From Odontesthes bonariensis (taxonomy: Eukaryota; Chordata; Actinopteri; Atheriniformes; Atherinopsidae): a DNA stretch of 64,000 nucleotides. The stretch spans positions 21,941,209 to 22,005,208 of the forward strand of contig NC_134510.1 in assembly GCF_027942865.1 (NCBI RefSeq), read 5' to 3'. The position numbers and the translations under genes are program-made. The notes under the pieces are model-generated. The model saw nothing but the letters and a program-made list of their open reading frames with translations, did no database searches and was not told the DNA's origin. The stretch's first letter is position 1. Every line of letters starts with the position of its first letter. Positions 33,998 to 64,000 of this stretch are shown here, piece after piece.

Positions 33998-34075
33998 TAA
34001 TTCCTTTTGACTAGTTCACTTTCCTAACATTCGCTGTTTCCCTCTTGACAAACATCCACAATTCATAGTAGTCTT

Positions 34076-34093
34076 TGCCGAAACCCGGGATTG

Positions 34094-34141
<48 letters not shown>

Positions 34142-34147
34142 TTTGGC
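34076..34147 (-). tRNA. tRNA-Phe-like (GAA) copy 1, class A variant
   Basis: First copy of the array. T stem CCTGG/CCGGG is paired but the T loop has lost one base; 5' end GCCAAAA gives one acceptor mismatch. Confidence 0.6.
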
Positions 34148-34399
34148 TACAAAGGGCCAAAATGGCCGTTTTCATTTGGAAAGTGAAACCAGGAACTCGC
34201 TCCGTGGAGCGTAGACGACAAAGCTGGGGAGCCAGATAAAGGCCACAAAATCGTAATAATTGACTGTTGTAGCTGAGGAAGAAGCCTCCTGTGTTTTCAT
34301 TAATCTAGTTTATTTGAGATGATTCCTTTTGACCAGTTCACTTTCCTAACATGAGCTTTGTTTCCCTCTTGACAAACATCCACAATTCATAGTAGTCTT

Positions 34400-34416
34400 T
34401 TCTGAAACCTTGGATT

Positions 34417-34459
<43 letters not shown>

Positions 34460-34472
34460 AAGCTATTTTGGC
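34400..34472 (-). tRNA. tRNA-Phe-like (GAA) copy 2
   Basis: 3' end TTTCAGA spoils the acceptor stem, and the A box has a C-to-T change (TAGCTTAG). Single-member variant. Confidence 0.5.
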
Positions 34473-34728
34473 TACAAAGGGTTAAAATGGCCGTTTACAT
34501 TTGGAAAGTAAAACCAGGAACTCGCTCCGTGGAGTGTAGACGACAAAGCTGGGGAGCCAGATAAAGGCCACAAAAAAAATGCAATAATTGACTGTTGTAG
34601 CTGAGGAAGAAGCCTCCTGTGTTTTCGTTAATGCAGATTTTTTGGAGTTTATGCCTTTTTACCGGTTCACTTTCCTAACATGGGCTGTTGTTCCCTCTTG
34701 ACAAACATCCACAATTCATAGTAGTCTT

Positions 34729-34801
34729 TGCCGAAACACGGGATTGAACCAGAGACCTTCAGATCTTCAGTCTGATGCTCTCCCAACTGAGCTTTTTCGG
34801 C
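34729..34801 (-). tRNA. tRNA-Phe-like (GAA) copy 3, class E
   Basis: Acceptor GCCGAAA/TTTCGGC pairs fully and the anticodon arm pairs. Position 8 is A and the T stem (TCTGG/CCGTG) has one mismatch. Confidence 0.65.
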
Positions 34802-35053
34802 TACAAAGGGCTAAAATGGCCGTTTTCATTTGGAAAGTGAAACCAGGAACTCGCTCCGTGGAGCGTAGACAACAAAGCTGTGGAGCCAGATAAAGGCCAC
34901 AAAATCGCAATAATTGACTGTTGTAGCTGAGGAAGAAGCCTCCTGTGTTTTCATTAATCTAGTTTTTTTGAGATGATTCCTTTTGACCAGTTCACTTTCC
35001 TAACATGGGCTGTGTTTCCCTCTTGACAAACATCCACAATTCATAGTAGTCTT

Positions 35054-35075
35054 TGCTGAAACCTGGGATTGAAAT

Positions 35076-35120
<45 letters not shown>

Positions 35121-35126
35121 TTCGGC
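35054..35126 (-). tRNA. tRNA-Phe-like (GAA) copy 4
   Basis: Only copy with the consensus 5' end GCCGAAATAG, but its T stem (CCTAT) is mispaired and the B box reads ATTTCAATCC. Confidence 0.55.
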
Positions 35127-35377
35127 TACAAAGGGATAAAATGGCCGTTTTCATTTGGAAAATAAAACCAGGAACTCACTCCGTGGAGCGTAGACGACAA
35201 AGCTGTAGAGCCAGATAAAGGCCACAAAAAAATGCAATAATTGACTGTTGTAGCTGAGGAAGAAGCCTCCTGTGTTTTCATTAATCTAGTTTATTTGAGA
35301 TGATTCCTTTTGACCAGTTCAATTTCCTAACATGGTTTGTGTTTCCCTCTAGACAAACATCCACAATACATAGTCTT

Positions 35378-35410
35378 TGCCGAAACCCAGGATTGAACGA
35401 GGGACCTTCT

Positions 35411-35442
<32 letters not shown>

Positions 35443-35450
35443 TTTTCGGC
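35378..35450 (-). tRNA. tRNA-Phe-like (GAA) copy 5, class B
   Basis: Spacer next to its 3' end is 3 bp short (CATAGTCTTT). Confidence 0.5.
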
Positions 35451-35702
35451 TACAAAGGGCTAAAATGGCCGTTTTCATTTGGAAAGTGAAACCAGGAACT
35501 CGCACCGTGGAGCGTAGACGACAAAGCTGGGGAGCCAGATAAAGGCCACAAAATCGCAATAATTGACTGTTGTAGCTGAGGAAGAAGCCTCCTGTGTTTT
35601 CATTAATCTAGGTTTTTCGAGATGATTCCTTTTTGCCAGTTCAATTTCCTAACATGGTTTGTGTTTCCCTCTAGACAAACATCCACAATTCATAGTAGTC
35701 TT

Positions 35703-35735
35703 TGCCGAAACCCAGGATTGAACGAGGGACCTTCT

Positions 35736-35767
<32 letters not shown>

Positions 35768-35775
35768 TTTTCGGC
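35703..35775 (-). tRNA. tRNA-Phe-like (GAA) copy 6, class B
   Basis: Same body as copy 5 with the full-length 3' flank. Confidence 0.5.
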
Positions 35776-36027
35776 TACAAAGGGCTAAAATGGCCGTTTT
35801 CATTTGGAAAGTGAAACCAGGAACTCGCTCCGTGGAGCGTAGACAACAAAGCTGTGGAGCCAGATAAAGGCCACAAAATCGCAATAATTGACTGTTGTAG
35901 CTGAGGAAGAAGCCTCCTGTGTTTTCATTAATCTAGGTTTTTTGAGATGATTCCTTTTGACCAGTTCACTTTCCTAACATGGGCTGTGTTCCCCTCTTGA
36001 CAAACATCCACAATTCATAGTAGTCTT

Positions 36028-36100
36028 TGCTGAAAGCTGGGATTGAACCAGCAACCTTCAAATCTTAAGTCTGACGCTCTACCAACTGAGCTATTTTGGC
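36028..36100 (-). tRNA. tRNA-Phe-bodied copy 7 with UAA anticodon, class G
   Basis: Loop CTTAAGA puts UAA at the anticodon. T stem GCTGG/CCAGC is fully paired with pair 49-65 swapped to G-C; D loop reads GTTGGTAGAGC; acceptor GCCAAAA/TTTCAGC has two mismatches. Confidence 0.65.
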
Positions 36101-40602: not shown

Positions 40603-40647
<45 letters not shown>

Positions 40648-40653
40648 TTGGGC
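40582..40653 (-). tRNA. tRNA-Phe-like (GAA) copy 21, class A
   Basis: 5' end GCCCAAA; last copy before higher-order block 1. Confidence 0.45.
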
Positions 40654-40907
40654 TACAAAGGGCTAAAATGGCCGTTTTCATTTGGAAAGTAAAACCAGGA
40701 ACTCGCTCCGTGGAGCGTAGACGACAAACCTGTGGAGCCAGAAAAAGGCCACAAAAAAATGCAATAATTGACTGTTGTAGCTGAGGAAGAAGCCTCCTGT
40801 GTTTTCATTAATCTAGGTTTTTTGAGATGATTCCTTTTGACCAGTTCACTTTCCTAACATGGGCTGTGTTTCCCTCTTGACAAACATCCACAATTCATAG
40901 TAGTCTT

Positions 40908-40980
40908 TGCTGAAACCTGGGATTGAACCAGGGACCTTCTGATCTTCAGTCTGACGCTCTCCCAAATGAGCTATTTGGGC
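40908..40980 (-). tRNA. tRNA-Phe-like (GAA) copy 22, class D2
   Basis: D loop changed to CATTTGGG. Opens block 1; counterparts are copies 37 and 52. Confidence 0.5.
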
Positions 40981-41236
40981 TAAAAAGGGCTAAAATGGCA
41001 GTTTTCATTTGGAAAGTAAAACCAGGAACTCGCTCCATGGAGTGTAGACGACAAAGCTGGGGAGCCAGATAAAGGCCACAAAAAAAATGCAATAATTGAC
41101 TGTTGTAGCTGAGGAAGAAGCCTCCTGTGTTTTCGTTAATGCAGATTTTTTGGAGTTTATGCCTTTTTACCGGTTCACTTTCCTAACATGGGCTGTTGTT
41201 CCCTCTTGACAAACATCCACAAATCATAGTAGTCTT

Positions 41237-41309
41237 TGCTGAAACCTTGGATTGAACCAGGGACCTTCAGATCTTCAGTCTGATGCTCTCCCAACTGAGC
41301 TATTTGGGC
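41237..41309 (-). tRNA. tRNA-Phe-like (GAA) copy 23, class D3
   Basis: Counterparts: copies 38, 53 and 71. Confidence 0.55.
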
Positions 41310-41561
41310 TACAAAGGGCTAAAATGGCAGTTTTCATTTGGAAAGTAAAACCAGGAACTCGCTCCGTGGAGCGTAGACGACAAACCTGTGGAGCCAGATA
41401 AAGGCCACAAAATCGCAATAATTGACTGTTGTAGCTGAGGAAGAAGCCTCCTGTGTTTTCATTAATCTAGGTTTTTTGAGATGATTCCTTTTGACTAGTT
41501 CACTTTCCTAACATTGGCTGTGTTTCCCTCTTGACAAACATCCACAATTCATAGTAGTCTT

Positions 41562-41582
41562 TGCCGAAACACGGGATTGACA

Positions 41583-41627
<45 letters not shown>

Positions 41628-41633
41628 TTTGGC
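41562..41633 (-). tRNA. tRNA-Phe-like (GAA) copy 24, class A
   Basis: 5' end GCCAAAA; counterparts 39, 54 and 72. Confidence 0.45.
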
Positions 41634-41885
41634 TACAAAGGGTTAAAATGGCCGTTTTCATTTGGAATGTAAAACCAGGAGCTCGCTCCGTGGAGCGTAG
41701 ACGACAAACCTGTGGAGCCAGATAAAGGCCACAAAATCGCAATAATTGACTGTTGTAGCTGAGGAAGAAGCCTCCTGTGTTTTCATTAATCTAGGTTTTT
41801 TGAGATGATTCCTTTTGACCAGTTCACTTTCCTAACATGGGCTGTGTTTCCCTCTTGACAAACATCCACAATTCATAGTAGTCTT

Positions 41886-41958
41886 TGCTGAAAGCTGGGA
41901 TTGAACCAGCAACCTTCAAATCTTAAGTCTGACGCTCTACCAACTGAGCTATTTTGGC
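41886..41958 (-). tRNA. tRNA-Phe-bodied copy 25 with UAA anticodon, class G
   Basis: Same body as copy 7, now embedded in higher-order block 1; counterparts 40, 55 and 73. Confidence 0.65.
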
Positions 41959-42211
41959 TACAAAGGGTTAAAATGGCCGTTTTCATTTGGAAAGTAAAAC
42001 CAGGAACTCGCTCCGTGGAGCGTAGACGACAAACCTGTGGAGCCAGATAAAGGCCACAAAATCTTAATAATTGACTGTTGTAGCTGAGGAAGAAGCCTCC
42101 TGTGTTATCGTTAATGCAGATTTTTTGGAGTTTATGCCTTTTTACCGGTTCAATTTCCTAACATGGTTTGTGTTTCCCTCTAGACAAACATCCACAATTC
42201 ATAGTAGTCTT

Positions 42212-42244
42212 TGCCGAAACCCAGGATTGAACGAGGGACCTTCT

Positions 42245-42276
<32 letters not shown>

Positions 42277-42284
42277 TTTTCGGC
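42212..42284 (-). tRNA. tRNA-Phe-like (GAA) copy 26, class B
   Basis: Counterparts 41, 56 and 74. Confidence 0.5.
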
Positions 42285-42536
42285 TACAAAGGGCTAAAAT
42301 GGCAGCTTTCATTTTGAAACTAAAACCAGGAACTCGCTCCGTGGAGCGTAGACGACAAACCTGTGGAGCCAGATAAAGGCCAGAAAATCGCAATAATTGA
42401 CTGTTGTAGCTGAGGAAGAAGCCTCCTGTGTTTTCATTAATCTTGGTTTTTTGAGATGATTCCTTTTGACCAGTTCACTTTACTAACATGGACTGTGTTT
42501 CCCTCTTGACAAACATCCACAATTCATAGTAGTCTT

Positions 42537-42569
42537 TGCTGAAACCTGGGATTGAACCAGGGACCTTCT

Positions 42570-42603
<34 letters not shown>

Positions 42604-42609
42604 TTGGGC
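42537..42609 (-). tRNA. tRNA-Phe-like (GAA) copy 27, class D2
   Basis: Perfect T arm; counterparts 42, 57 and 75. Confidence 0.55.
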
Positions 42610-42860
42610 TACAAAGGGCTAAAATGGCCGTTTTCATTTGGAAAGTGAAACCAGGAACTCGCTCAGTGGAGTGTAGACGACAAAGCTGTAGAGCCAGAAA
42701 AAGGCCACAAAAAAATGCAATAATTGACTGTTGTAGCTGAGGAAGAAGCCTCCTGTGTTTTCATTAATCTAGTTTATTTGAGATGATTCCTTTTGACCAG
42801 TTCACTGTCCTAACATGGGCTTTGTTTCCCTCTTGACAAACATCCACAATTCATAGTCTT

Positions 42861-42893
42861 TGCCGAAACCCAGGATTGAACGAGGGACCTTCT

Positions 42894-42927
<34 letters not shown>

Positions 42928-42933
42928 TTGGGC
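42861..42933 (-). tRNA. tRNA-Phe-like (GAA) copy 28, class C
   Basis: GCCCAAA/TTTCGGC acceptor with one mismatch; short 3' flank. Counterparts 43, 58 and 76. Confidence 0.5.
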
Positions 42934-43185
42934 TACAAAGGGCTAAAATGGCAGTTTTCATTTGGAAAGTAAAACCAGGAACTCGCTCCGTGGAGTGTAG
43001 ACGACAAAGCTGGGGAGCCAGATAAAGGCCACAAAATCGCAATAATTGACTGTTGTAGCTGAGGAAGAAGCCTCCTGTGTTTTCATCAATCTTGGTTTTT
43101 TGAGATGATTCCTTTTGAACAATTCACTTCCCTAACATGGGCTGTTGTTCCCTCTTGACAAACATCCACAATTCATAGTAGTCTT

Positions 43186-43258
43186 TGCCGAAACACAGGA
43201 TTGAACCAGGGACCTTCAGATCTTCAGCCTGACGCTCTCCCAACTGAGCTACTTGGGC
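43186..43258 (-). tRNA. tRNA-Phe-like (GAA) copy 29, class F
   Basis: GCCCAAG 5' end; anticodon stem TCAGG/TCTGA pairs with a G-U. Counterparts 44, 64 and 82. Confidence 0.55.
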
Positions 43259-43510
43259 TACAAAAGGCTAAAATGGCAGCTTTCATTTGGAAAGTAAAAC
43301 CAGGAACTCGCTCCGTGGAGTGTAGACGACAAAGCTGGGGAGCCAGATAAAGGCCACAAAATCGCAATAATTGACTGTTGTAGCTGAGGAAGAAGCCTCC
43401 TGTGTTTTCATCAATCTTGGTTTTTTGAGATGATTCCTTTTGAACAATTCACTTCCCTAACATGGGCTGTTGTTCCCTCTTGACAAACATCCACAATTCA
43501 TAGTAGTCTT

Positions 43511-43543
43511 TGCCGAAACCCAGGATTGAACGAGGGACCTTCT

Positions 43544-43575
<32 letters not shown>

Positions 43576-43583
43576 TTTTCGGC
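43511..43583 (-). tRNA. tRNA-Phe-like (GAA) copy 30, class B
   Basis: Counterparts 45, 59 and 77. Confidence 0.5.
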
Positions 43584-43835
43584 TACAAAGGGCTAAAATG
43601 GCAGCTTTCATTTTGAAACTAAAACCAGGAACTCGCTCCGTGGAGCGTAGACGACAAAGCTGGGGAGCCAGATAAAGGCCAGAAAATCGCAATAATTGAC
43701 TGTTGTAGCTGAGGAAGAAGCCTCCTGTGTTTTCATTAATCTTGGTTTTTTGAGATGATTCCTTTTGACCAGTTCACTTTACTAACATGGACTGTGTTTC
43801 CCTCTTGACAAACATCCACAATTCATAGTAGTCTT

Positions 43836-43868
43836 TGCTGAAACCTGGGATTGAACCAGGGACCTTCT

Positions 43869-43902
<34 letters not shown>

Positions 43903-43908
43903 TTGGGC
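43836..43908 (-). tRNA. tRNA-Phe-like (GAA) copy 31, class D2
   Basis: 5' flank reads TTTTTAGCCC instead of TTTGTAGCCC; counterparts 46, 60 and 78. Confidence 0.55.
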
Positions 43909-44164
43909 TAAAAAGGGCTAAAATGGCCGTTTTCATTTGGAAAGTAAAACCAGGAACTCGCTCCATGGAGTGTAGACGACAAAGCTGGGGAGCCAGATAA
44001 AGGCCACAAAAAAAATGCAATAATTGACTGTTGTAGCTGAGGAAGAAGCCTCCTGTGTTTTCGTTAATGCAGATTTTTTGGAGTTTATGCCTTTTTACCG
44101 GTTCACTTTCCTAACATGGGCTGTTGTTCCCTCTTGACAAACATCCACAAATCATAGTAGTCTT

Positions 44165-44197
44165 TGCTGAAACCTTGGATTGAACGAGGGACCTTCT

Positions 44198-44231
<34 letters not shown>

Positions 44232-44237
44232 TTGGGC
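44165..44237 (-). tRNA. tRNA-Phe-like (GAA) copy 32, class C with TTTCAGC 3' end
   Basis: T arm CCTCG/CAAGG; looks like a D3/C hybrid. Counterparts 47, 61 and 79. Confidence 0.45.
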
Positions 44238-44489
44238 TACAAAGGGCTAAAATGGCAGCTTTCATTTTGAAACTAAAACCAGGAACTCGCTCCGTGGAGC
44301 GTAGACGACAAACCTGTGGAGCCAGATAAAGGCCAGAAAATCGCAATAATTGACTGTTGTAGCTGAGGAAGAAGCCTCCTGTGTTTTCATTAATCTAGTT
44401 TTTTTGAGATGATTCCTTTTGACCAGTTCACTTTCCTAACATGGGCTGTGTTTCCCTCTTGACAAACATCCACAATTCATAGTAGTCTT

Positions 44490-44562
44490 TGCTGAAACCT
44501 GGGATTGAACCAGGGACCTTCAGATCTTCAGTCTGATGCTCTCCCAACTGAGCTATTTGGGC
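44490..44562 (-). tRNA. tRNA-Phe-like (GAA) copy 33, class D1
   Basis: Same body as copy 19; counterpart 48. Confidence 0.65.
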
Positions 44563-44817
44563 TACAAAGGGCTAAAATGGCAGCTTTCATTTGGAAAGTA
44601 AAACCAGGAACTCGCTCCGTGGAGTGTAGACGACAAAGCTGGGGAGCCAGATAAAGGCCACAAAAAAAATGCAATAATTGACTGTTGTAGCTGAGGAAGA
44701 AGCCTCCTGTGTTTTCATTAATCTAGGTTTTTTGAGATGATTCCTTTTTACCAGTTCACTTTCCTAACATGGTTTGTGTTTCCCTCTTGACAAACATCCA
44801 CAATTCATAGTAGTCTT

Positions 44818-53022: not shown

Positions 53023-53274
53023 TACAAAGGGCTAAAATGGCAGCTTTCATTTTGAAACTAAAACCAGGAACTCGCTCCGTGGAGCGTAGACGACAAAGCT
53101 GGGGAGCCAGATAAAGGCCAGAAAATCGCAATAATTGACTGTTGTAGCTGAGGAAGAAGCCTCCTGTGTTTTCATTAATCTTGGTTTTTTGAGATGATTC
53201 CTTTTGACCAGTTCACTTTACTAACATGGACTGTGTTTCCCTCTTGACAAACATCCACAATTCATAGTAGTCTT

Positions 53275-53307
53275 TGCTGAAACCTGGGATTGAACCAGGG
53301 ACCTTCT

Positions 53308-53341
<34 letters not shown>

Positions 53342-53347
53342 TTGGGC
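53275..53347 (-). tRNA. tRNA-Phe-like (GAA) copy 60, class D2
   Basis: Matches 46 and 78. Confidence 0.55.
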
Positions 53348-53603
53348 TAAAAAGGGCTAAAATGGCCGTTTTCATTTGGAAAGTAAAACCAGGAACTCGC
53401 TCCATGGAGTGTAGACGACAAAGCTGGGGAGCCAGATAAAGGCCACAAAAAAAATGCAATAATTGACTGTTGTAGCTGAGGAAGAAGCCTCCTGTGTTTT
53501 CGTTAATGCAGATTTTTTGGAGTTTATGCCTTTTTACCGGTTCACTTTCCTAACATGGGCTGTTGTTCCCTCTTGACAAACATCCACAAATCATAGTAGT
53601 CTT

Positions 53604-53636
53604 TGCTGAAACCTTGGATTGAACGAGGGACCTTCT

Positions 53637-53670
<34 letters not shown>

Positions 53671-53676
53671 TTGGGC
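53604..53676 (-). tRNA. tRNA-Phe-like (GAA) copy 61, class C hybrid
   Basis: Like copy 47, with AAAGGACTAAAA in the flank; matches 79. Confidence 0.45.
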
Positions 53677-53928
53677 TACAAAGGACTAAAATGGCAGCTT
53701 TCATTTTGAAACTAAAACCAGGAACTCGCTCCGTGGAGCGTAGACGACAAACCTGTGGAGCCAGATAAAGGCCAGAAAATCGCAATAATTGACTGTTGTA
53801 GCTGAGGAAGAAGCCTCCTGTGTTTTCATTAATCTTGGTTTTTTGAGATGATTCCTTTTGACCAGTTCACTTTACTAACATGGACTGTGTTTCCCTCTTG
53901 ACAAACATCCACAATTCATAGTAGTCTT

Positions 53929-53961
53929 TGCTGAAACCTGGGATTGAACCAGGGACCTTCT

Positions 53962-53995
<34 letters not shown>

Positions 53996-54001
53996 TTGGG
54001 C
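53929..54001 (-). tRNA. tRNA-Phe-like (GAA) copy 62, class D2
   Basis: Duplicate of copy 57 at 1,628 bp; matches 80. Confidence 0.55.
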
Positions 54002-54252
54002 TACAAAGGGCTAAAATGGCCGTTTTCATTTGGAAAGTGAAACCAGGAACTCGCTCAGTGGAGTGTAGACGACAAAGCTGTAGAGCCAGAAAAAGGCCAC
54101 AAAAAAATGCAATAATTGACTGTTGTAGCTGAGGAAGAAGCCTCCTGTGTTTTCATTAATCTAGTTTATTTGAGATGATTCCTTTTGACCAGTTCACTGT
54201 CCTAACATGGGCTTTGTTTCCCTCTTGACAAACATCCACAATTCATAGTCTT

Positions 54253-54285
54253 TGCCGAAACCCAGGATTGAACGAGGGACCTTCT

Positions 54286-54319
<34 letters not shown>

Positions 54320-54325
54320 TTGGGC
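54253..54325 (-). tRNA. tRNA-Phe-like (GAA) copy 63, class C
   Basis: Duplicate of copy 58 type; matches 81. Confidence 0.5.
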
Positions 54326-54577
54326 TACAAAGGGCTAAAATGGCAGTTTTCATTTGGAAAGTAAAACCAGGAACTCGCTCCGTGGAGTGTAGACGACAAA
54401 GCTGGGGAGCCAGATAAAGGCCACAAAATCGCAATAATTGACTGTTGTAGCTGAGGAAGAAGCCTCCTGTGTTTTCATCAATCTTGGTTTTTTGAGATGA
54501 TTCCTTTTGAACAATTCACTTCCCTAACATGGGCTGTTGTTCCCTCTTGACAAACATCCACAATTCATAGTAGTCTT

Positions 54578-54650
54578 TGCCGAAACACAGGATTGAACCA
54601 GGGACCTTCAGATCTTCAGCCTGACGCTCTCCCAACTGAGCTACTTGGGC
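54578..54650 (-). tRNA. tRNA-Phe-like (GAA) copy 64, class F
   Basis: Same body as copies 29 and 44; matches 82. Confidence 0.55.
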
Positions 54651-54902
54651 TACAAAAGGCTAAAATGGCAGCTTTCATTTGGAAAGTAAAACCAGGAACT
54701 CGCTCCGTGGAGTGTAGACGACAAAGCTGGGGAGCCAGATAAAGGCCACAAAATCGCAATAATTGACTGTTGTAGCTGAGGAAGAAGCCTCCTGTGTTTT
54801 CATCAATCTTGGTTTTTTGAGATGATTCCTTTTGAACAATTCACTTCCCTAACATGGGCTGTTGTTCCCTCTTGACAAACATCCACAATTCATAGTAGTC
54901 TT

Positions 54903-54935
54903 TGCCGAAACCCAGGATTGAACGAGGGACCTTCT

Positions 54936-54967
<32 letters not shown>

Positions 54968-54975
54968 TTTTCGGC
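54903..54975 (-). tRNA. tRNA-Phe-like (GAA) copy 65, class B
   Basis: Following spacer carries a private GACGGTTGTAG change also seen after copy 83. Confidence 0.5.
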
Positions 54976-55227
54976 TACAAAGGGCTAAAATGGCAGCTTT
55001 CATTTTGAAACTAAAACCAGGAACTCGCTCCGTGGAGCGTAGACGACAAAGCTGGGGAGCCAGATAAAGGCCAGAAAATCGCAATAATTGACGGTTGTAG
55101 CTGAGGAAGAAGCCTCCTGTGTTTTCATTAATCTTGGTTTTTTGAGATGATTCCTTTTGACCAGTTCACTTTACTAACATGGACTGTGTTTCCCTCTTGA
55201 CAAACATCCACAATTCATAGTAGTCTT

Positions 55228-55260
55228 TGCTGAAACCTGGGATTGAACCAGGGACCTTCT

Positions 55261-55294
<34 letters not shown>

Positions 55295-55300
55295 TTGGGC
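55228..55300 (-). tRNA. tRNA-Phe-like (GAA) copy 66, class D2
   Basis: Duplicate of copy 62 at 1,299 bp; matches 84. Confidence 0.55.
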
Positions 55301-55551
55301 TACAAAGGGCTAAAATGGCCGTTTTCATTTGGAAAGTGAAACCAGGAACTCGCTCCGTGGAGTGTAGACGACAAAGCTGTAGAGCCAGAAAAAGGCCACA
55401 AAAAAATGCAATAATTGACTGTTGTAGCTGAGGAAGAAGCCTCCTGTGTTTTCATTAATCTAGTTTATTTGAGATGATTCCTTTTGACCAGTTCACTGTT
55501 CTAACATGGGCTTTGTTTCCCTCTTGACAAACATCCACAATTCATAGTCTT

Positions 55552-55584
55552 TGCCGAAACCCAGGATTGAACGAGGGACCTTCT

Positions 55585-55618
<34 letters not shown>

Positions 55619-55624
55619 TTGGGC
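55552..55624 (-). tRNA. tRNA-Phe-like (GAA) copy 67, class C
   Basis: Duplicate of copy 63 at 1,299 bp; matches 85. Confidence 0.5.
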
Positions 55625-55879
55625 TACAAAGGACTAAAATGGCAGTTTTCATTTGGAAAGTAAAACCAGGAACTCGCTCCGTGGAGTGTAGACGACAAAG
55701 CTGGGGAGCCAGATAAAGGCCACAAAAAAAATGCAATAACTGACTGTTGTAGCTGAGGAAGAAGCCTCCTGTGTTTTCATCAATCTTGGTTTTTTGAGAT
55801 GATTCCTTTTGAACAATTCACTTCCCTAACATGGGCTGTTGTTCCCTCTTGACAAACATCCACAATTCATAGTAGTCTT

Positions 55880-55912
55880 TGCCGAAACCCAGGATTGAAC
55901 GAGGGACCTTCG

Positions 55913-55944
<32 letters not shown>

Positions 55945-55952
55945 TTTTCGGC
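55880..55952 (-). tRNA. tRNA-Phe-like (GAA) copy 68, class B variant
   Basis: Anticodon stem has A-C instead of A-A at 29-41 (TCCGA), as in copy 90. Confidence 0.5.
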
Positions 55953-56204
55953 TACAAAGGGCTAAAATGGCAGCTTTCATTTTGAAACTAAAACCAGGAA
56001 CTCGCTCCGTGGAGCGTAGACGACAAAGCTGTGGAGCCAGATAAAGGCCACAAAATCGCAATAATTGACTGTTGTAGCTGAGGAAGAAGCCTCCTGTGTT
56101 TTCATTAATCTTGGTTTTTTGAGATGATTCCTTTTGACCAGTTCACTTTACTAACATGGACTTTGTTTCCCTCTTGACAAACATCCACAATTCATAGTAG
56201 TCTT

Positions 56205-56277
56205 TGCCGAAACACGGAATTGAACCAGGGACCTTCAGATCTTCAGTCTGATGCTCTCCCAACTGAGCTTTTTCGGC
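56205..56277 (-). tRNA. tRNA-Phe-like (GAA) copy 69, class E
   Basis: T loop TTCAATT; acceptor fully paired; matches 87. Confidence 0.65.
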
Positions 56278-56529
56278 TACAAAGGGCTAAAATGGCCGTT
56301 TTCATTTGGAAAGTAAAACCAGGAACTCGCTCCGTGGAGCGTAGACGACAAAGCTGTGGAGCCAGATAAAGGCCACAAAATCGCAATAATTGACTGTTGT
56401 AGCTGAGGAAGAAGCCTCCTGTGTTTTCATTAATCTAGGTTTTTCGATATGATTCCTTTTTGCCAGTTCAATTTCCTAACATGGTTTGTGTTCCCCTCTA
56501 GAAAAACATCCACAATTCATAGTAGTCTT

Positions 56530-56554
56530 TTCTAAAAGCTGGGATTGAACCAGA

Positions 56555-56587
<33 letters not shown>

Positions 56588-56602
56588 ATGAGCTATTTGG
56601 GC
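56530..56602 (-). tRNA. tRNA-Phe-like (GAA) copy 70, class H
   Basis: 3' end TTTTAGA cannot pair fully with GCCCAAA. A T5 run lies about 23 nt downstream. Hybrid with the copy 52 type in its 5' half. Confidence 0.45.
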
Positions 56603-56858
56603 TAAAAAGGGCTAAAATGGCAGTTTTCATTTGGAAAGTAAAACCAGGAACTCGCTCCATGGAGTGTAGACGACAAAGCTGGGGAGCCAGATAAAGGCCA
56701 CAAAAAAAATGCAATAATTGACTGTTGTAGCTGAGGAAGAAGCCTCCTGTGTTTTCGTTAATGCAGATTTTTTGGAGTTTATGCCTTTTTACCGGTTCAC
56801 TTTCCTAACATGGGCTGTTGTTCCCTCTTGACAAACATCCACAAATCATAGTAGTCTT

Positions 56859-56931
56859 TGCTGAAACCTTGGATTGAACCAGGGACCTTCAGATCTTCAG
56901 TCTGATGCTCTCCCAACTGAGCTATTTGGGC
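56859..56931 (-). tRNA. tRNA-Phe-like (GAA) copy 71, class D3
   Basis: Matches 53 at 5,858 bp. Confidence 0.55.
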
Positions 56932-57183
56932 TACAAAGGGCTAAAATGGCAGTTTTCATTTGGAAAGTAAAACCAGGAACTCGCTCCGTGGAGCGTAGAC
57001 GACAAACCTGTGGAGCCAGATAAAGGCCACAAAATCGCAATAATTGACTGTTGTAGCTGAGGAAGAAGCCTCCTGTGTTTTCATTAATCTAGGTTTTTTG
57101 AGATGATTCCTTTTGACTAGTTCACTTTCCTAACATTGGCTGTGTTTCCCTCTTGACAAACATCCACAATTCATAGTAGTCTT

Positions 57184-57204
57184 TGCCGAAACACGGGATT
57201 GACA

Positions 57205-57249
<45 letters not shown>

Positions 57250-57255
57250 TTTGGC
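57184..57255 (-). tRNA. tRNA-Phe-like (GAA) copy 72, class A
   Basis: Matches 54. Confidence 0.45.
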
Positions 57256-57507
57256 TACAAAGGGTTAAAATGGCCGTTTTCATTTGGAATGTAAAACCAG
57301 GAGCTCGCTCCGTGGAGCGTAGACGACAAACCTGTGGAGCCAGATAAAGGCCACAAAATCGCAATAATTGACTGTTGTAGCTGAGGAAGAAGCCTCCTGT
57401 GTTTTCATTAATCTAGGTTTTTTGAGATGATTCCTTTTGACCAGTTCACTTTCCTAACATGGGCTGTGTTTCCCTCTTGACAAACATCCACAATTCATAG
57501 TAGTCTT

Positions 57508-57580
57508 TGCTGAAAGCTGGGATTGAACCAGCAACCTTCAAATCTTAAGTCTGACGCTCTACCAACTGAGCTATTTTGGC
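57508..57580 (-). tRNA. tRNA-Phe-bodied copy 73 with UAA anticodon, class G
   Basis: Last of the seven UAA copies in the window; matches 55. Confidence 0.65.
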
Positions 57581-57833
57581 TACAAAGGGTTAAAATGGCC
57601 GTTTTCATTTGGAAAGTAAAACCAGGAACTCGCTCCGTGGAGCGTAGACGACAAACCTGTGGAGCCAGATAAAGGCCACAAAATCTTAATAATTGACTGT
57701 TGTAGCTGAGGAAGAAGCCTCCTGTGTTATCGTTAATGCAGATTTTTTGGAGTTTATGCCTTTTTACCGGTTCAATTTCCTAACATGGTTTGTGTTTCCC
57801 TCTAGACAAACATCCACAATTCATAGTAGTCTT

Positions 57834-57866
57834 TGCCGAAACCCAGGATTGAACGAGGGACCTTCT

Positions 57867-57898
<32 letters not shown>

Positions 57899-57906
57899 TT
57901 TTCGGC
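57834..57906 (-). tRNA. tRNA-Phe-like (GAA) copy 74, class B
   Basis: Matches 56. Confidence 0.5.
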
Positions 57907-58158
57907 TACAAAGGGCTAAAATGGCAGCTTTCATTTTGAAACTAAAACCAGGAACTCGCTCCGTGGAGCGTAGACGACAAACCTGTGGAGCCAGATAAAG
58001 GCCAGAAAATCGCAATAATTGACTGTTGTAGCTGAGGAAGAAGCCTCCTGTGTTTTCATTAATCTTGGTTTTTTGAGATGATTCCTTTTGACCAGTTCAC
58101 TTTACTAACATGGACTGTGTTTCCCTCTTGACAAACATCCACAATTCATAGTAGTCTT

Positions 58159-58191
58159 TGCTGAAAGCTGGGATTGAACCAGGGACCTTCT

Positions 58192-58225
<34 letters not shown>

Positions 58226-58231
58226 TTGGGC
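58159..58231 (-). tRNA. tRNA-Phe-like (GAA) copy 75, class D2 variant
   Basis: Matches 57 except that the T stem 3' strand is CCAGC, as in class G, giving one mismatch. Confidence 0.5.
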
Positions 58232-58482
58232 TACAAAGGGCTAAAATGGCCGTTTTCATTTGGAAAGTGAAACCAGGAACTCGCTCAGTGGAGTGTAGAC
58301 GACAAAGCTGTAGAGCCAGAAAAAGGCCACAAAAAAATGCAATAATTGACTGTTGTAGCTGAGGAAGAAGCCTCCTGTGTTTTCATTAATCTAGTTTATT
58401 TGAGATGATTCCTTTTGACCAGTTCACTGTCCTAACATGGGCTTTGTTTCCCTCTTGACAAACATCCACAATTCATAGTCTT

Positions 58483-58515
58483 TGCCGAAACCCAGGATTG
58501 AACGAGGGACCTTCT

Positions 58516-58549
<34 letters not shown>

Positions 58550-58555
58550 TTGGGC
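58483..58555 (-). tRNA. tRNA-Phe-like (GAA) copy 76, class C
   Basis: Matches 58. Confidence 0.5.
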
Positions 58556-58807
58556 TACAAAGGGCTAAAATGGCAGTTTTCATTTGGAAAGTAAAACCAG
58601 GAACTCGCTCCGTGGAGTGTAGACGACAAAGCTGGGGAGCCAGATAAAGGCCACAAAATCGCAATAATTGACTGTTGTAGCTGAGGAAGAAGCCTCCTGT
58701 GTTTTCATCAATCTTGGTTTTTTGAGATGATTCCTTTTGAACAATTCACTTCCCTAACATGGGCTGTTGTTCCCTCTTGACAAACATCCACAATTCATAG
58801 TAGTCTT

Positions 58808-58840
58808 TGCCGAAACCCAGGATTGAACGAGGGACCTTCT

Positions 58841-58872
<32 letters not shown>

Positions 58873-58880
58873 TTTTCGGC
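58808..58880 (-). tRNA. tRNA-Phe-like (GAA) copy 77, class B
   Basis: Matches 59. Confidence 0.5.
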
Positions 58881-59132
58881 TACAAAGGGCTAAAATGGCA
58901 GCTTTCATTTTGAAACTAAAACCAGGAACTCGCTCCGTGGAGCGTAGACGACAAAGCTGGGGAGCCAGATAAAGGCCAGAAAATCGCAATAATTGACTGT
59001 TGTAGCTGAGGAAGAAGCCTCCTGTGTTTTCATTAATCTTGGTTTTTTGAGATGATTCCTTTTGACCAGTTCACTTTACTAACATGGACTGTGTTTCCCT
59101 CTTGACAAACATCCACAATTCATAGTAGTCTT

Positions 59133-59165
59133 TGCTGAAACCTGGGATTGAACCAGGGACCTTCT

Positions 59166-59199
<34 letters not shown>

Positions 59200-59205
59200 T
59201 TGGGC
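59133..59205 (-). tRNA. tRNA-Phe-like (GAA) copy 78, class D2
   Basis: Matches 60. Confidence 0.55.
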
Positions 59206-59461
59206 TAAAAAGGGCTAAAATGGCCGTTTTCATTTGGAAAGTAAAACCAGGAACTCGCTCCATGGAGTGTAGACGACAAAGCTGGGGAGCCAGATAAAGG
59301 CCACAAAAAAAATGCAATAATTGACTGTTGTAGCTGAGGAAGAAGCCTCCTGTGTTTTCGTTAATGCAGATTTTTTGGAGTTTATGCCTTTTTACCGGTT
59401 CACTTTCCTAACATGGGCTGTTGTTCCCTCTTGACAAACATCCACAAATCATAGTAGTCTT

Positions 59462-59494
59462 TGCTGAAACCTTGGATTGAACGAGGGACCTTCT

Positions 59495-59528
<34 letters not shown>

Positions 59529-59534
59529 TTGGGC
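59462..59534 (-). tRNA. tRNA-Phe-like (GAA) copy 79, class C hybrid
   Basis: Matches 61. Confidence 0.45.
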
Positions 59535-59786
59535 TACAAAGGACTAAAATGGCAGCTTTCATTTTGAAACTAAAACCAGGAACTCGCTCCGTGGAGCGTA
59601 GACGACAAACCTGTGGAGCCAGATAAAGGCCAGAAAATCGCAATAATTGACTGTTGTAGCTGAGGAAGAAGCCTCCTGTGTTTTCATTAATCTTGGTTTT
59701 TTGAGATGATTCCTTTTGACCAGTTCACTTTACTAACATGGACTGTGTTTCCCTCTTGACAAACATCCACAATTCATAGTAGTCTT

Positions 59787-59819
59787 TGCTGAAACCTGGG
59801 ATTGAACCAGGGACCTTCT

Positions 59820-59853
<34 letters not shown>

Positions 59854-59859
59854 TTGGGC
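59787..59859 (-). tRNA. tRNA-Phe-like (GAA) copy 80, class D2
   Basis: Matches 62. Confidence 0.55.
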
Positions 59860-60110
59860 TACAAAGGGCTAAAATGGCCGTTTTCATTTGGAAAGTGAAA
59901 CCAGGAACTCGCTCAGTGGAGTGTAGACGACAAAGCTGTAGAGCCAGAAAAAGGCCACAAAAAAATGCAATAATTGACTGTTGTAGCTGAGGAAGAAGCC
60001 TCCTGTGTTTTCATTAATCTAGTTTATTTGAGATGATTCCTTTTGACCAGTTCACTGTCCTAACATGGGCTTTGTTTCCCTCTTGACAAACATCCACAAT
60101 TCATAGTCTT

Positions 60111-60143
60111 TGCCGAAACCCAGGATTGAACGAGGGACCTTCT

Positions 60144-60177
<34 letters not shown>

Positions 60178-60183
60178 TTGGGC
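60111..60183 (-). tRNA. tRNA-Phe-like (GAA) copy 81, class C
   Basis: Matches 63. Confidence 0.5.
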
Positions 60184-60435
60184 TACAAAGGGCTAAAATG
60201 GCAGTTTTCATTTGGAAAGTAAAACCAGGAACTCGCTCCGTGGAGTGTAGACGACAAAGCTGGGGAGCCAGATAAAGGCCACAAAATCGCAATAATTGAC
60301 TGTTGTAGCTGAGGAAGAAGCCTCCTGTGTTTTCATCAATCTTGGTTTTTTGAGATGATTCCTTTTGAACAATTCACTTCCCTAACATGGGCTGTTGTTC
60401 CCTCTTGACAAACATCCACAATTCATAGTAGTCTT

Positions 60436-60508
60436 TGCCGAAACACAGGATTGAACCAGGGACCTTCAGATCTTCAGCCTGACGCTCTCCCAACTGAGCT
60501 ACTTGGGC
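60436..60508 (-). tRNA. tRNA-Phe-like (GAA) copy 82, class F
   Basis: Matches 64. Confidence 0.55.
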
Positions 60509-60760
60509 TACAAAAGGCTAAAATGGCAGCTTTCATTTGGAAAGTAAAACCAGGAACTCGCTCCGTGGAGTGTAGACGACAAAGCTGGGGAGCCAGATAA
60601 AGGCCACAAAATCGCAATAATTGACTGTTGTAGCTGAGGAAGAAGCCTCCTGTGTTTTCATCAATCTTGGTTTTTTGAGATGATTCCTTTTGAACAATTC
60701 ACTTCCCTAACATGGGCTGTTGTTCCCTCTTGACAAACATCCACAATTCATAGTAGTCTT

Positions 60761-60793
60761 TGCCGAAACCCAGGATTGAACGAGGGACCTTCT

Positions 60794-60825
<32 letters not shown>

Positions 60826-60833
60826 TTTTCGGC
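60761..60833 (-). tRNA. tRNA-Phe-like (GAA) copy 83, class B
   Basis: Matches 65, including the GACGGTTGTAG spacer change. Confidence 0.5.
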
Positions 60834-61085
60834 TACAAAGGGCTAAAATGGCAGCTTTCATTTTGAAACTAAAACCAGGAACTCGCTCCGTGGAGCGTAG
60901 ACGACAAAGCTGGGGAGCCAGATAAAGGCCAGAAAATCGCAATAATTGACGGTTGTAGCTGAGGAAGAAGCCTCCTGTGTTTTCATTAATCTTGGTTTTT
61001 TGAGATGATTCCTTTTGACCAGTTCACTTTACTAACATGGACTGTGTTTCCCTCTTGACAAACATCCACAATTCATAGTAGTCTT

Positions 61086-61118
61086 TGCTGAAACCTGGGA
61101 TTGAACCAGGGACCTTCT

Positions 61119-61152
<34 letters not shown>

Positions 61153-61158
61153 TTGGGC
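61086..61158 (-). tRNA. tRNA-Phe-like (GAA) copy 84, class D2
   Basis: Matches 66. Confidence 0.55.
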
Positions 61159-61409
61159 TACAAAGGGCTAAAATGGCCGTTTTCATTTGGAAAGTGAAAC
61201 CAGGAACTCGCTCCGTGGAGTGTAGACGACAAAGCTGTAGAGCCAGAAAAAGGCCACAAAAAAATGCAATAATTGACTGTTGTAGCTGAGGAAGAAGCCT
61301 CCTGTGTTTTCATTAATCTAGTTTATTTGAGATGATTCCTTTTGACCAGTTCACTGTTCTAACATGGGCTTTGTTTCCCTCTTGACAAACATCCACAATT
61401 CATAGTCTT

Positions 61410-61442
61410 TGCCGAAACCCAGGATTGAACGAGGGACCTTCT

Positions 61443-61476
<34 letters not shown>

Positions 61477-61482
61477 TTGGGC
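61410..61482 (-). tRNA. tRNA-Phe-like (GAA) copy 85, class C
   Basis: Matches 67. Confidence 0.5.
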
Positions 61483-61737
61483 TACAAAGGACTAAAATGG
61501 CAGTTTTCATTTGGAAAGTAAAACCAGGAACTCGCTCCGTGGAGTGTAGACGACAAAGCTGGGGAGCCAGATAAAGGCCACAAAAAAAATGCAATAACTG
61601 ACTGTTGTAGCTGAGGAAGAAGCCTCCTGTGTTTTCATCAATCTTGGTTTTTTGAGATGATTCCTTTTGAACAATTCACTTCCCTAACATGGGCTGTTGT
61701 TCCCTCTTGACAAACATCCACAATTCATAGTAGTCTT

Positions 61738-61770
61738 TGCCGAAACCCAGGATTGAACGAGGGACCTTCT

Positions 61771-61802
<32 letters not shown>

Positions 61803-61810
61803 TTTTCGGC
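61738..61810 (-). tRNA. tRNA-Phe-like (GAA) copy 86, class B
   Basis: Corresponds to 68 but with TCAGA in the anticodon stem; its unit carries the GTAGATTAGG variant. Confidence 0.5.
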
Positions 61811-62062
61811 TACAAAGGGCTAAAATGGCAGCTTTCATTTTGAAACTAAAACCAGGAACTCGCTCCGTGGAGCGTAGACGACAAAGCTGTGGAGCCAGAT
61901 AAAGGCCACAAAATCGCAATAATTGACTGTTGTAGATTAGGAAGAAGCCTCCTGTGTTTTCATTAATCTTGGTTTTTTGAGATGATTCCTTTTGACCAGT
62001 TCACTTTACTAACATGGACTTTGTTTCCCTCTTGACAAACATCCACAATTCATAGTAGTCTT

Positions 62063-62135
62063 TGCCGAAACACGGAATTGAACCAGGGACCTTCAGATCT
62101 TCAGTCTGATGCTCTCCCAACTGAGCTTTTTCGGC
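62063..62135 (-). tRNA. tRNA-Phe-like (GAA) copy 87, class E
   Basis: Matches 69. Confidence 0.65.
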
Positions 62136-62387
62136 TACAAAGGGCTAAAATGGCCGTTTTCATTTGGAAAGTAAAACCAGGAACTCGCTCCGTGGAGCGT
62201 AGACGACAAAGCTGTGGAGCCAGATAAAGGCCACAAAATCGCAATAATTGACTGTTGTAGCTGAGGAAGAAGCCTCCTGTGTTTTCATTAATCTAGGTTT
62301 TTCGATATGATTCCTTTTTGCCAGTTCAATTTCCTAACATGGTTTGTGTTCCCCTCTAGAAAAACATCCACAATTCATAGTAGTCTT

Positions 62388-62460
62388 TTCTAAAAGCTGG
62401 GATTGAACCAGAGACCTTCAGATCTTCAGTCTGACGCTCCCCCAACTGAGCTATTTTGGC
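62388..62460 (-). tRNA. tRNA-Phe-like (GAA) copy 88, class H
   Basis: 3' half as copy 70, 5' half GCCAAAA with an unchanged D loop; the 18-unit repeat ends inside it. T5 run about 23 nt downstream. Confidence 0.45.
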
Positions 62461-62715
62461 TACAAAGGGTTAAAATGGCAGCTTTCATTTGGAAAGTGAA
62501 ACCAGGAACTCGCTCCGTGGAGTGTAGACGACAAAGCTGGGGAGCCAGATAAAGGCCACAAAAAAAATGCAATAACTGACTGTTGTAGCTGAGGAAGAAG
62601 CCTCCTGTGTTTTCATCAATCTTGGTTTTTTGAGATGATTCCTTTTGAACAATTCACTTCCCTAACATGGGCTGTTGTTCCCTCTTGACAAACATCCACA
62701 ATTCATAGTAGTCTT

Positions 62716-62748
62716 TGCCGAAACCCAGGATTGAACGAGGGACCTTCT

Positions 62749-62780
<32 letters not shown>

Positions 62781-62788
62781 TTTTCGGC
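62716..62788 (-). tRNA. tRNA-Phe-like (GAA) copy 89, class B
   Basis: Duplicate of copy 86 at 978 bp. Confidence 0.5.
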
Positions 62789-63040
62789 TACAAAGGGCTA
62801 AAATGGCAGCTTTCATTTTGAAACTAAAACCAGGAACTCGCTCCGTGGAGCGTAGACGACAAAGCTGTGGAGCCAGATAAAGGCCACAAAATCGCAATAA
62901 TTGACTGTTGTAGATTAGGAAGAAGCCTCCTGTGTTTTCATCAATCTTGGTTTTTTGAGATGATTCCTTTTGAACAATTCACTTCCCTAACATGGGCTGT
63001 TGTTCCCTCTTGACAAACATCCACAATTCATAGTAGTCTT

Positions 63041-63073
63041 TGCCGAAACCCAGGATTGAACGAGGGACCTTCG

Positions 63074-63105
<32 letters not shown>

Positions 63106-63113
63106 TTTTCGGC
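63041..63113 (-). tRNA. tRNA-Phe-like (GAA) copy 90, class B variant
   Basis: Shares the TCCGA anticodon-stem strand with copy 68. Confidence 0.5.
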
Positions 63114-63365
63114 TACAAAGGGCTAAAATGGCAGCTTTCATTTTGAAACTAAAACCAGGAACTCGCTCCGTGGAGCGTAGACGACAAAGCTGTGGAGCCA
63201 GATAAAGGCCACAAAATCGCAATAATTGACTGTTGTAGCTGAGGAAGAAGCCTCCTGTGTTTTCATTAATCTTGGTTTTTTGAGATGATTCCTTTTGACC
63301 AGTTCACTTTACTAACATGGACTGTGTTTCCCTCTTGACAAACATCCACAATTCATAGTAGTCTT

Positions 63366-63438
63366 TGCCGAAACACGGAATTGAACCAGGGACCTTCAGA
63401 TCTTCAGTCTGATGCTCTCCCAACTGAGCTTTTTCGGC
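63366..63438 (-). tRNA. tRNA-Phe-like (GAA) copy 91, class E
   Basis: Same body as copies 69 and 87. Confidence 0.65.
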
Positions 63439-63690
63439 TACAAAGGGCTAAAATGGCCGTTTTCATTTGGAAAGTAAAACCAGGAACTCGCTCCGTGGAG
63501 CGTAGACGACAAAGCTGTGGAGCCAGATAAAGGCCACAAAATCGCAATAATTGACTGTTGTAGCTGAGGAAGAAGCCTCCTGTGTTTTCATTAATCTAGG
63601 TTTTTCGATATGATTCCTTTTTGCCAGTTCAATTTCCTAACATGGTTTGTGTTCCCCTCTAGAAAAACATCCACAATTCATAGTAGTCTT

Positions 63691-63715
63691 TTCTAAAAGC
63701 TGGGATTGAACCAGA

Positions 63716-63757
<42 letters not shown>

Positions 63758-63763
63758 TTTGGC
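63691..63763 (-). tRNA. tRNA-Phe-like (GAA) copy 92, class H
   Basis: Last complete copy in the window; T5 run about 23 nt downstream. A further unit starts after it and is cut by the window end. Confidence 0.45.
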
Positions 63764-64000
63764 TACAAAGGGTTAAAATGGCAGCTTTCATTTGGAAAGT
63801 GAAACCAGGAACTCGCTCCGTGGAGTGTAGACGACAAAGCTGTAGAGCCAGATAAAGGCCACAAAAAAATGCAATAATTGACTGTTGTAGCTGAGGAAGA
63901 AGCCTCCTGTGTTTTCATTAATCTAGTTTATTTTTGATGATTCCTTTTGACCAGTTCACTGTCCTAACATGGGCTTTGTTTCCCTCTTGACAAACATCCA

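What the first reader, a model, noticed from the sequence alone, without database searches (positions are those of the whole stretch)
34000..64000. A 30-kb satellite-like array of 92 tRNA-Phe-like units
Seen: 92 head-to-tail units of about 325 bp, each with a minus-strand tRNA-Phe(GAA)-like body with recognisable A and B boxes, still running at the window edge. Known: fish genomes have many clustered tRNA genes, but a single-isotype array this long and regular is satellite-like. Inference: a tRNA gene plus its flank was amplified by unequal exchange, and the locus may serve as a tRNA gene cluster, a Pol III/TFIIIC-binding chromatin element, or simply a satellite.
Basis: partly seen in the sequence, partly recalled or inferred. 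Interest (0 to 1): 0.9.

Follow-up and report, generated by a model that had tools for sequence, protein, structure and literature searches.

The report
Decayed tRNA-Phe gene satellite array
A 129-kb block of about 370 head-to-tail copies of a phenylalanine tRNA gene has turned into satellite DNA on this chromosome and no longer looks like working tRNA genes, while sister blocks lie on many other chromosomes and some of them still hold intact copies.

Summary
The array is real: 34000-64000 holds 92 head-to-tail copies of a 325-bp unit, and 92 of 92 carry a minus-strand Rfam tRNA. In the assembly it continues to about 129 kb, with two insertions. Here the tRNA bodies do not behave as genes: 92 of 92 have at least one broken stem pair; outside CpG columns the body varies as much as the spacer (0.051 vs 0.054); 88 of 92 have no T4 terminator for 145 nt. 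Near-identical 15- and 18-unit higher-order repeats point to unequal exchange. The repeat occurs in groups on at least 15 of 24 chromosomes, 14 of them in the central third, each sampled array with its own variants. Other arrays still hold intact bodies (186 exact copies genome-wide, 94 in one C1 array), some with T4 15 nt downstream. My patterns found no conventional dispersed tRNA-Phe gene, while initiator-Met and Lys controls found 5 and 24 ordinary genes. Best reading: a tRNA-Phe gene satellite family; the window's array is a decayed member and the intact arrays probably supply the tRNA. Large tDNA clusters are known in teleosts; the single-isotype, multi-chromosome form and the apparent lack of ordinary genes are the unusual part.

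The parts
34000..64000 (-). tandem array of 92 units of about 325 bp, each with a tRNA-Phe-like body on the minus strand; goes on beyond the window
34076..34147 (-). first tRNA-Phe-like body at the left end of the array
36028..36100 (-). example of the TAA-anticodon variant (7 of 92 units; others at 37004, 38300, 41886, 46768, 51650, 57508), called 'Leu' by ARAGORN but with a Phe-type body
40647..52979 (-). 15-unit higher-order repeat, period 4882 bp, about 2.5 copies; 9 differences in 7300 compared positions, four of them at the left edge
50686..62467 (-). 18-unit higher-order repeat, period 5858 bp, about 2 copies; 4 differences in 5700 compared positions
63691..63763 (-). last complete tRNA-Phe-like body inside the window

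Best explanation
A tRNA-Phe(GAA) gene with about 250 bp of flank was amplified in tandem and came to lie in arrays on many chromosomes, mostly in their middle, where each array changes on its own by unequal exchange like a satellite. The array in the window, on C6, is a decayed member: its tRNA bodies drift without visible constraint, its CpG sites are the fastest-changing as in methylated silent DNA, and most units lack a near Pol III terminator. It is expected to give little or no mature tRNA-Phe, at most read-through Pol III RNA. Some sister arrays, chiefly C1:29.49-29.63 Mb and in part C3:20.82-20.89 Mb, keep intact bodies, some with near terminators, and probably supply the cell's tRNA-Phe. 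Shown: structure, decay, spread and separate homogenisation. Inferred: silence, methylation, order of events, and which arrays are live.
For: Window: 92 of 92 bodies have 1-4 non-standard stem pairs, U8 changed in 24; first T4 146-151 nt downstream in 88 of 92; non-CpG diversity body 0.0506 vs spacer 0.0544, permutation 0.43; CpG columns 0.33 in body and 0.18 in spacer; 207 of 423 body changes at 8 CpG positions. Whole C6 array: 0 of 368 ungapped-scored bodies free of a stem mismatch, 0 exact intact. Unequal exchange. Separate homogenisation: nearest neighbour on the same array for 198 of 202 units. Family: 1505 sites of a spacer word, reversed control 0. Sisters: 186 exact bodies, of the first 100 listed 94 in C1:29489926-29626310; C1 sample 17 of 26 exact, 10 of these with T4 at +15; C3 sample 4 of 17 exact, 3 of these with T4 at +15. 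Between-array consensus divergence body 0.033 vs spacer 0.084, 21 of 21 non-independent pairs of 7 arrays. No conventional dispersed tRNA-Phe by patterns, with Met and Lys controls found.
Against: No expression, methylation or Pol III data. Both full boxes remain in 23 of 92 units, and in the first C6 block 25 of 231 scored bodies have T4 within 30 nt, so some transcription is possible. Within the sampled C1 array the body (0.027) is no less variable than the 60 nt upstream (0.030), and in C3 it exceeds the 60 nt downstream (0.048 vs 0.030), so present selection on the supposed live arrays is not shown. In C24 and C25 the body departs from the C6 consensus as much as or more than the spacer. 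Exact copies in C1 are partly copies of one another by homogenisation.
Confidence: 0.7

Rival explanations
1. The C6 array is a working tRNA-Phe gene cluster, like the large tDNA clusters known in teleosts, with tolerated sequence variants and RNA processing of read-through transcripts.
For: 92 of 92 units pass Rfam's gathering score; 85 of 92 keep GAA; A box in 64 and B-box core in 76 of 92; clusters of fifty and more are in print for teleosts (PMC2888827).
Against: Broken stem pairs in 92 of 92, no intact body among 368 on C6, neutral body, far terminators.
Confidence: 0.1
2. The repeat is a (peri)centromeric satellite whose tRNA parts matter for chromatin (TFIIIC, Pol III or transcription), not for translation.
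For: Groups on 15 of 24 chromosomes, 14 of 15 in the central third at one locus each, P about 2e-6, a test chosen after seeing the places; higher-order repeats and array-specific variants; no other large satellite in the 34 kb left of the array or in the 101 kb right of it.
Against: No array found on 9 chromosomes with the patterns used; two loci on C1, C2, C17 and C29; C29 at 27-30%; initiator-Met genes also lie mid-chromosome on C13, so the position need not mean centromere; no CENP-A data; karyotype unknown.
Confidence: 0.2
3. The unit is a tandemly amplified tRNA-Phe-headed SINE rather than an amplified gene.
For: tRNA head plus unrelated body, T4 far downstream; a few lone pattern sites away from arrays on C15, C16 and C23.
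Against: No unit-like copy in the 34 kb left of the array at E below 0.1; no A-rich tail in the unit consensus; nearly all listed sites lie in groups. Lone sites were not read.
Confidence: 0.05
4. The array length or the higher-order repeats are assembly artefacts.
For: Higher-order copies are nearly identical.
Against: Copies carry scattered differences, 9 of 7300 and 4 of 5700; arrays of the same family recur at many loci with their own variants; no N in the 264 kb of C6 read.
Confidence: 0.05

Closest known systems
Large tDNA clusters of teleost fishes (Bermudez-Santana et al. 2010, PMC2888827; passages seen, section 6 read)
   Same: Very large clusters of tRNA genes and pseudogenes with parallel orientation; [quoted passage not shown]
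   Different: The paper describes mostly mixed-isotype neighbours for zebrafish; here one isotype, a 325-bp satellite unit with higher-order repeats, on many chromosomes, decayed in the window.
tRNA gene arrays of Entamoeba (PMC2652664; abstract and outline seen)
   Same: tRNA genes carried in long tandem arrays.
   Different: In Entamoeba almost all tRNA genes are in arrays of 25 unit types with up to 5 genes each; here one gene per unit, one isotype, and most units in the window are decayed.
Chromosome-specific higher-order-repeat satellites such as human alpha satellite (recalled, no call)
   Same: Monomers of a few hundred bp, higher-order repeats, array-specific variants.
   Different: The monomer is a recognisable tRNA gene; not found on all chromosomes; no centromere protein evidence.
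Tandem tRNA gene repeats of Xenopus (recalled, no call)
   Same: Tandem repeats holding tRNA genes in a vertebrate.
   Different: Recalled as a 3.2-kb unit with several isotypes; here one isotype in 325 bp.

Membership tests
Functional nuclear tRNA-Phe gene (window units) | tRNA recognised by covariance model | tested here: met
   92 of 92 above gathering, 42.2-64.2 bits
Functional nuclear tRNA-Phe gene (window units) | Intact cloverleaf stems | tested here: not met
   92 of 92 have 1-4 non-standard stem pairs
Functional nuclear tRNA-Phe gene (window units) | Internal A and B boxes | tested here: inconclusive
   A box 64 of 92, full B box 32, B core 76, both full 23
Functional nuclear tRNA-Phe gene (window units) | Pol III terminator (T4 or more) close to the 3' end | tested here: not met
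   first T4 at 146-151 nt in 88 of 92, 24 nt in 3, none before the array end in 1
Functional nuclear tRNA-Phe gene (window units) | Purifying selection on the body | tested here: not met
   non-CpG diversity 0.0506 in body, 0.0544 in spacer, permutation 0.43
Functional nuclear tRNA-Phe gene (window units) | Transcription and aminoacylation | not testable with these tools
   no RNA data at hand
Satellite DNA | Long head-to-tail array of similar monomers | tested here: met
   92.2 copies in the window, about 129 kb in all
Satellite DNA | Unequal exchange / higher-order repeats and concerted evolution | tested here: met
   nearest neighbour on the same array 198 of 202
Centromeric satellite | Present at every chromosome's centromere | tested here: inconclusive
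   15 of 24 chromosomes with groups; none found on 9 with exact 22-letter patterns; centromere positions unknown
Centromeric satellite | CENP-A chromatin | not testable with these tools
   no ChIP data
Teleost tDNA cluster | tDNAs within 1000 nt of each other (definition of PMC2888827), in a teleost | tested here: inconclusive
   spacing 321-329 bp meets it; organism unnamed
tRNA-headed SINE | Dispersed copies with tails and target-site duplications | tested here: inconclusive
   no copy in 34 kb to the left, no A-rich tail in the consensus; lone sites on C15, C16, C23 not read

The most novel reading that the evidence does not exclude
In this genome the whole cytosolic tRNA-Phe gene supply lives inside a mid-chromosome, possibly pericentromeric, satellite: one essential tRNA isotype has been captured by satellite evolution, with a few arrays kept live by selection while the rest decay into, or serve as, structural DNA.
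Probability: 0.3. Interest if true: 0.85.

Novelty: new variant of a known kind. Interest (0 to 1): 0.6.

Why it matters
If the intact arrays are the only source of tRNA-Phe, a gene needed for all translation evolves by the rules of satellite DNA. That would give a direct test of how selection keeps live copies among many decaying ones, and of whether tRNA-derived repeats can act as (peri)centromeric DNA. It also shows that counting tRNA hits alone misleads: 92 of 92 units here pass the covariance model although none has an intact cloverleaf.

Tried and rejected
A first idea that the whole family is dead was dropped when C25, C1 and C3 showed intact bodies. A first idea of one array per chromosome as a universal centromere repeat was weakened by double loci and by chromosomes without matches. 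A Tigger-like insertion at the left edge could not be shown: the terminal motif (recalled) has no partner end in the window. Paper searches for tRNA-derived satellites, tRNA arrays in fish or tRNA-linked centromere repeats (listings seen) gave PMC2888827 and PMC2652664 as the relevant ones. One search found the common vertebrate anticodon-arm string in two papers (listing only) and the array's string in none.

Limits. The absence of a conventional tRNA-Phe gene rests on three patterns and one 73-nt search; genes with another T-arm, a T4 further than 13 nt, or in withheld stretches would be missed. C17:19.35 Mb holds one isolated Phe-like body without array spacer, with no T4 seen in the stretch printed after it and a mismatched acceptor pair, so not every Phe-like body lies in an array. 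Chromosome mapping rests on listings cut at 100 places and one complete listing of a single 22-letter pattern; C20, C21, C26 and C28 were covered by that one pattern only. The last unit, cut by the window edge, was left out of the diversity counts. One search dropped unit spacings outside 280-470 bp and bodies with more than 14 differences, which lost all C23 units and many of C25; three of its ten arrays had one unit only and could not score. One search scored bodies without gaps, so bodies with an indel count as heavily mismatched. The central-third test was chosen after seeing the places.
Full report
What is there. The region 34000-64000 is one tandem array of a 325-bp unit, 92.2 copies. 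Rfam finds a tRNA in 92 units, all on the minus strand, at 42.2 to 64.2 bits. The anticodon is GAA in 85 of 92 and TAA in 7 of 92. The window lies at C6:21941209-22005208 of an unnamed 945-Mb assembly. There the array runs over C6:21975208-22103968, about 129 kb in three blocks with two insertions of about 1.6 and 6.4 kb, near 52% of a 42.2-Mb contig.

How it grew. At a 2% cut-off the 91 complete units fall into 28 clusters, and their order shows a 15-unit higher-order repeat of 4882 bp followed by an 18-unit one of 5858 bp. The copies differ at 9 of 7300 and 4 of 5700 positions. This is what recent unequal exchange leaves behind, and the scattered differences speak against a pure assembly artefact.

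Is it a set of tRNA genes? In this array, most likely not. Each of the 92 bodies has 1 to 4 non-standard stem pairs, and U8 is changed in 24. In the whole C6 array none of 368 bodies scored without gaps is free of a stem mismatch, and none is exactly intact. Over all columns the body is more variable than the spacer (0.0925 vs 0.065); the excess comes from CpG columns, and outside them body and spacer are alike (0.0506 vs 0.0544, permutation 0.43). CpG columns vary most (0.33 in the body, 0.18 in the spacer), as expected for methylated DNA (inference). The first T4 on the RNA strand lies 146-151 nt after the tRNA in 88 of 92 units, 24 nt after it in 3, and not before the array end in 1; in the first C6 block 25 of 231 scored bodies have T4 within 30 nt. 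Full A and B boxes are both present in 23 of 92, so some Pol III factor binding is not excluded.

The family elsewhere. A conserved spacer word is found 1505 times in the genome with up to 2 mismatches, and 0 times when read backwards. Groups were located on C1, C2, C3, C6, C7, C12, C16, C17, C19, C22, C23, C24, C25, C27 and C29, with a lone site on C15. These are 15 of 24 chromosome-sized contigs, which sum to 937.5 Mb. Taking one locus per chromosome, 14 of 15 lie in the central third, P about 2e-6 under uniform placement, in a test chosen after seeing the places. C1, C2, C17 and C29 have two loci each. C4, C13, C14, C18, C20, C21, C26 and C28 gave no match, and C15 one lone site, with the one or two exact patterns whose listings covered them. 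For 202 distinct units from ten sampled arrays, 198 have their nearest neighbour on the same array; three of the four misses come from arrays with a single unit. So arrays homogenise separately.

Intact sisters. The exact intact body occurs 186 times genome-wide; of the first 100 listed, 94 lie in C1:29489926-29626310, one in C1 at 24.56 Mb and five in C2. In a 10-kb sample of the large C1 array 17 of 26 bodies are exact and 10 of these have T4 at +15; in an 8-kb sample of C3, 4 of 17 are exact and 3 of these have T4 at +15. Consensus sequences of seven arrays differ less in the body (0.033) than in the spacer (0.084), in 21 of 21 non-independent pairs, which suggests that the body was long held by selection. 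Against this, within the C1 sample the body (0.027) is no less variable than the 60 nt upstream (0.030), and in C3 it exceeds the 60 nt downstream (0.048 vs 0.030); present selection is therefore not shown. In six C25 stretches, 10 of 54 tRNA matches score 69.8 bits or more and 28 are 58 nt long through a 15-nt loss, so intact and broken copies are amplified side by side.

Where are the ordinary tRNA-Phe genes? The usual vertebrate anticodon arm (recalled) occurs with 0-1 mismatch at 5 places only, all with one mismatch and in the C1 array at 24.56-24.58 Mb. No Phe 3' half of the expected sequence with T4 within 13 nt exists in the assembly, nor one with a non-A base at position 74 and T4 within about 25 nt. 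The best matches to the recalled 73-nt sequence were 96% and lay in the C19 array; of 40 places scored out of 57 candidates, 39 were in arrays and one was an isolated body on C17. The same kind of pattern finds 5 initiator-Met genes on C13 and 24 Lys genes on C13, C16 and C22, so ordinary tRNA genes with near terminators are in the assembly. The Lys sites lie at about 58-90% of their contigs, unlike the Phe arrays; the initiator-Met sites lie at about 50-54% of C13 (with lengths), so a mid-chromosome place is not unique to Phe.

Judgement. The window shows a decayed satellite made from tRNA-Phe genes. That teleosts can have very large tDNA clusters is in print (PMC2888827, section 6 read), and arrays holding almost all tRNA genes are in print for Entamoeba (PMC2652664, abstract seen). 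What I did not find in the searches listed is a single-isotype tRNA satellite spread over many chromosomes with no conventional gene seen. Centromere function is possible but untested, and the chromosomes without matches count against a universal role.

Noticed in passing
window 32636-32812: Near-perfect palindrome: 87-nt arms, 98% complementary, 3 nt between them, nested between 28-nt inverted arms at 32473-32500 and 32815-32842.
   Followed up: no
window 33985-33999: A sequence like the end of a Tigger/pogo transposon (recalled) stops exactly where the array starts; no partner end was found in the window.
   Followed up: partly
window 26021-26946: Tc1/Sleeping-Beauty-like transposase remnants in two overlapping plus-strand frames.
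   Followed up: no
window 9199-9645: Minus-strand open frame with a RhoGAP domain match, 6.6e-09; probably an exon of a host gene.
   Followed up: no
window 36028-36100 and six more units: TAA-anticodon variant of the Phe body; it has the highest or near-highest Rfam scores of the array (60.6-64.2 bits) and a 49:65 pair changed on both sides.
   Followed up: partly
G000 C13:20.27-21.88 Mb: All five initiator-Met genes found lie near the middle of C13, in two places, three of them about 0.9 kb apart.
   Followed up: no
G000 C22:20.294-20.303 Mb: The C22 array changes orientation between 20295861 and 20296603.
   Followed up: no
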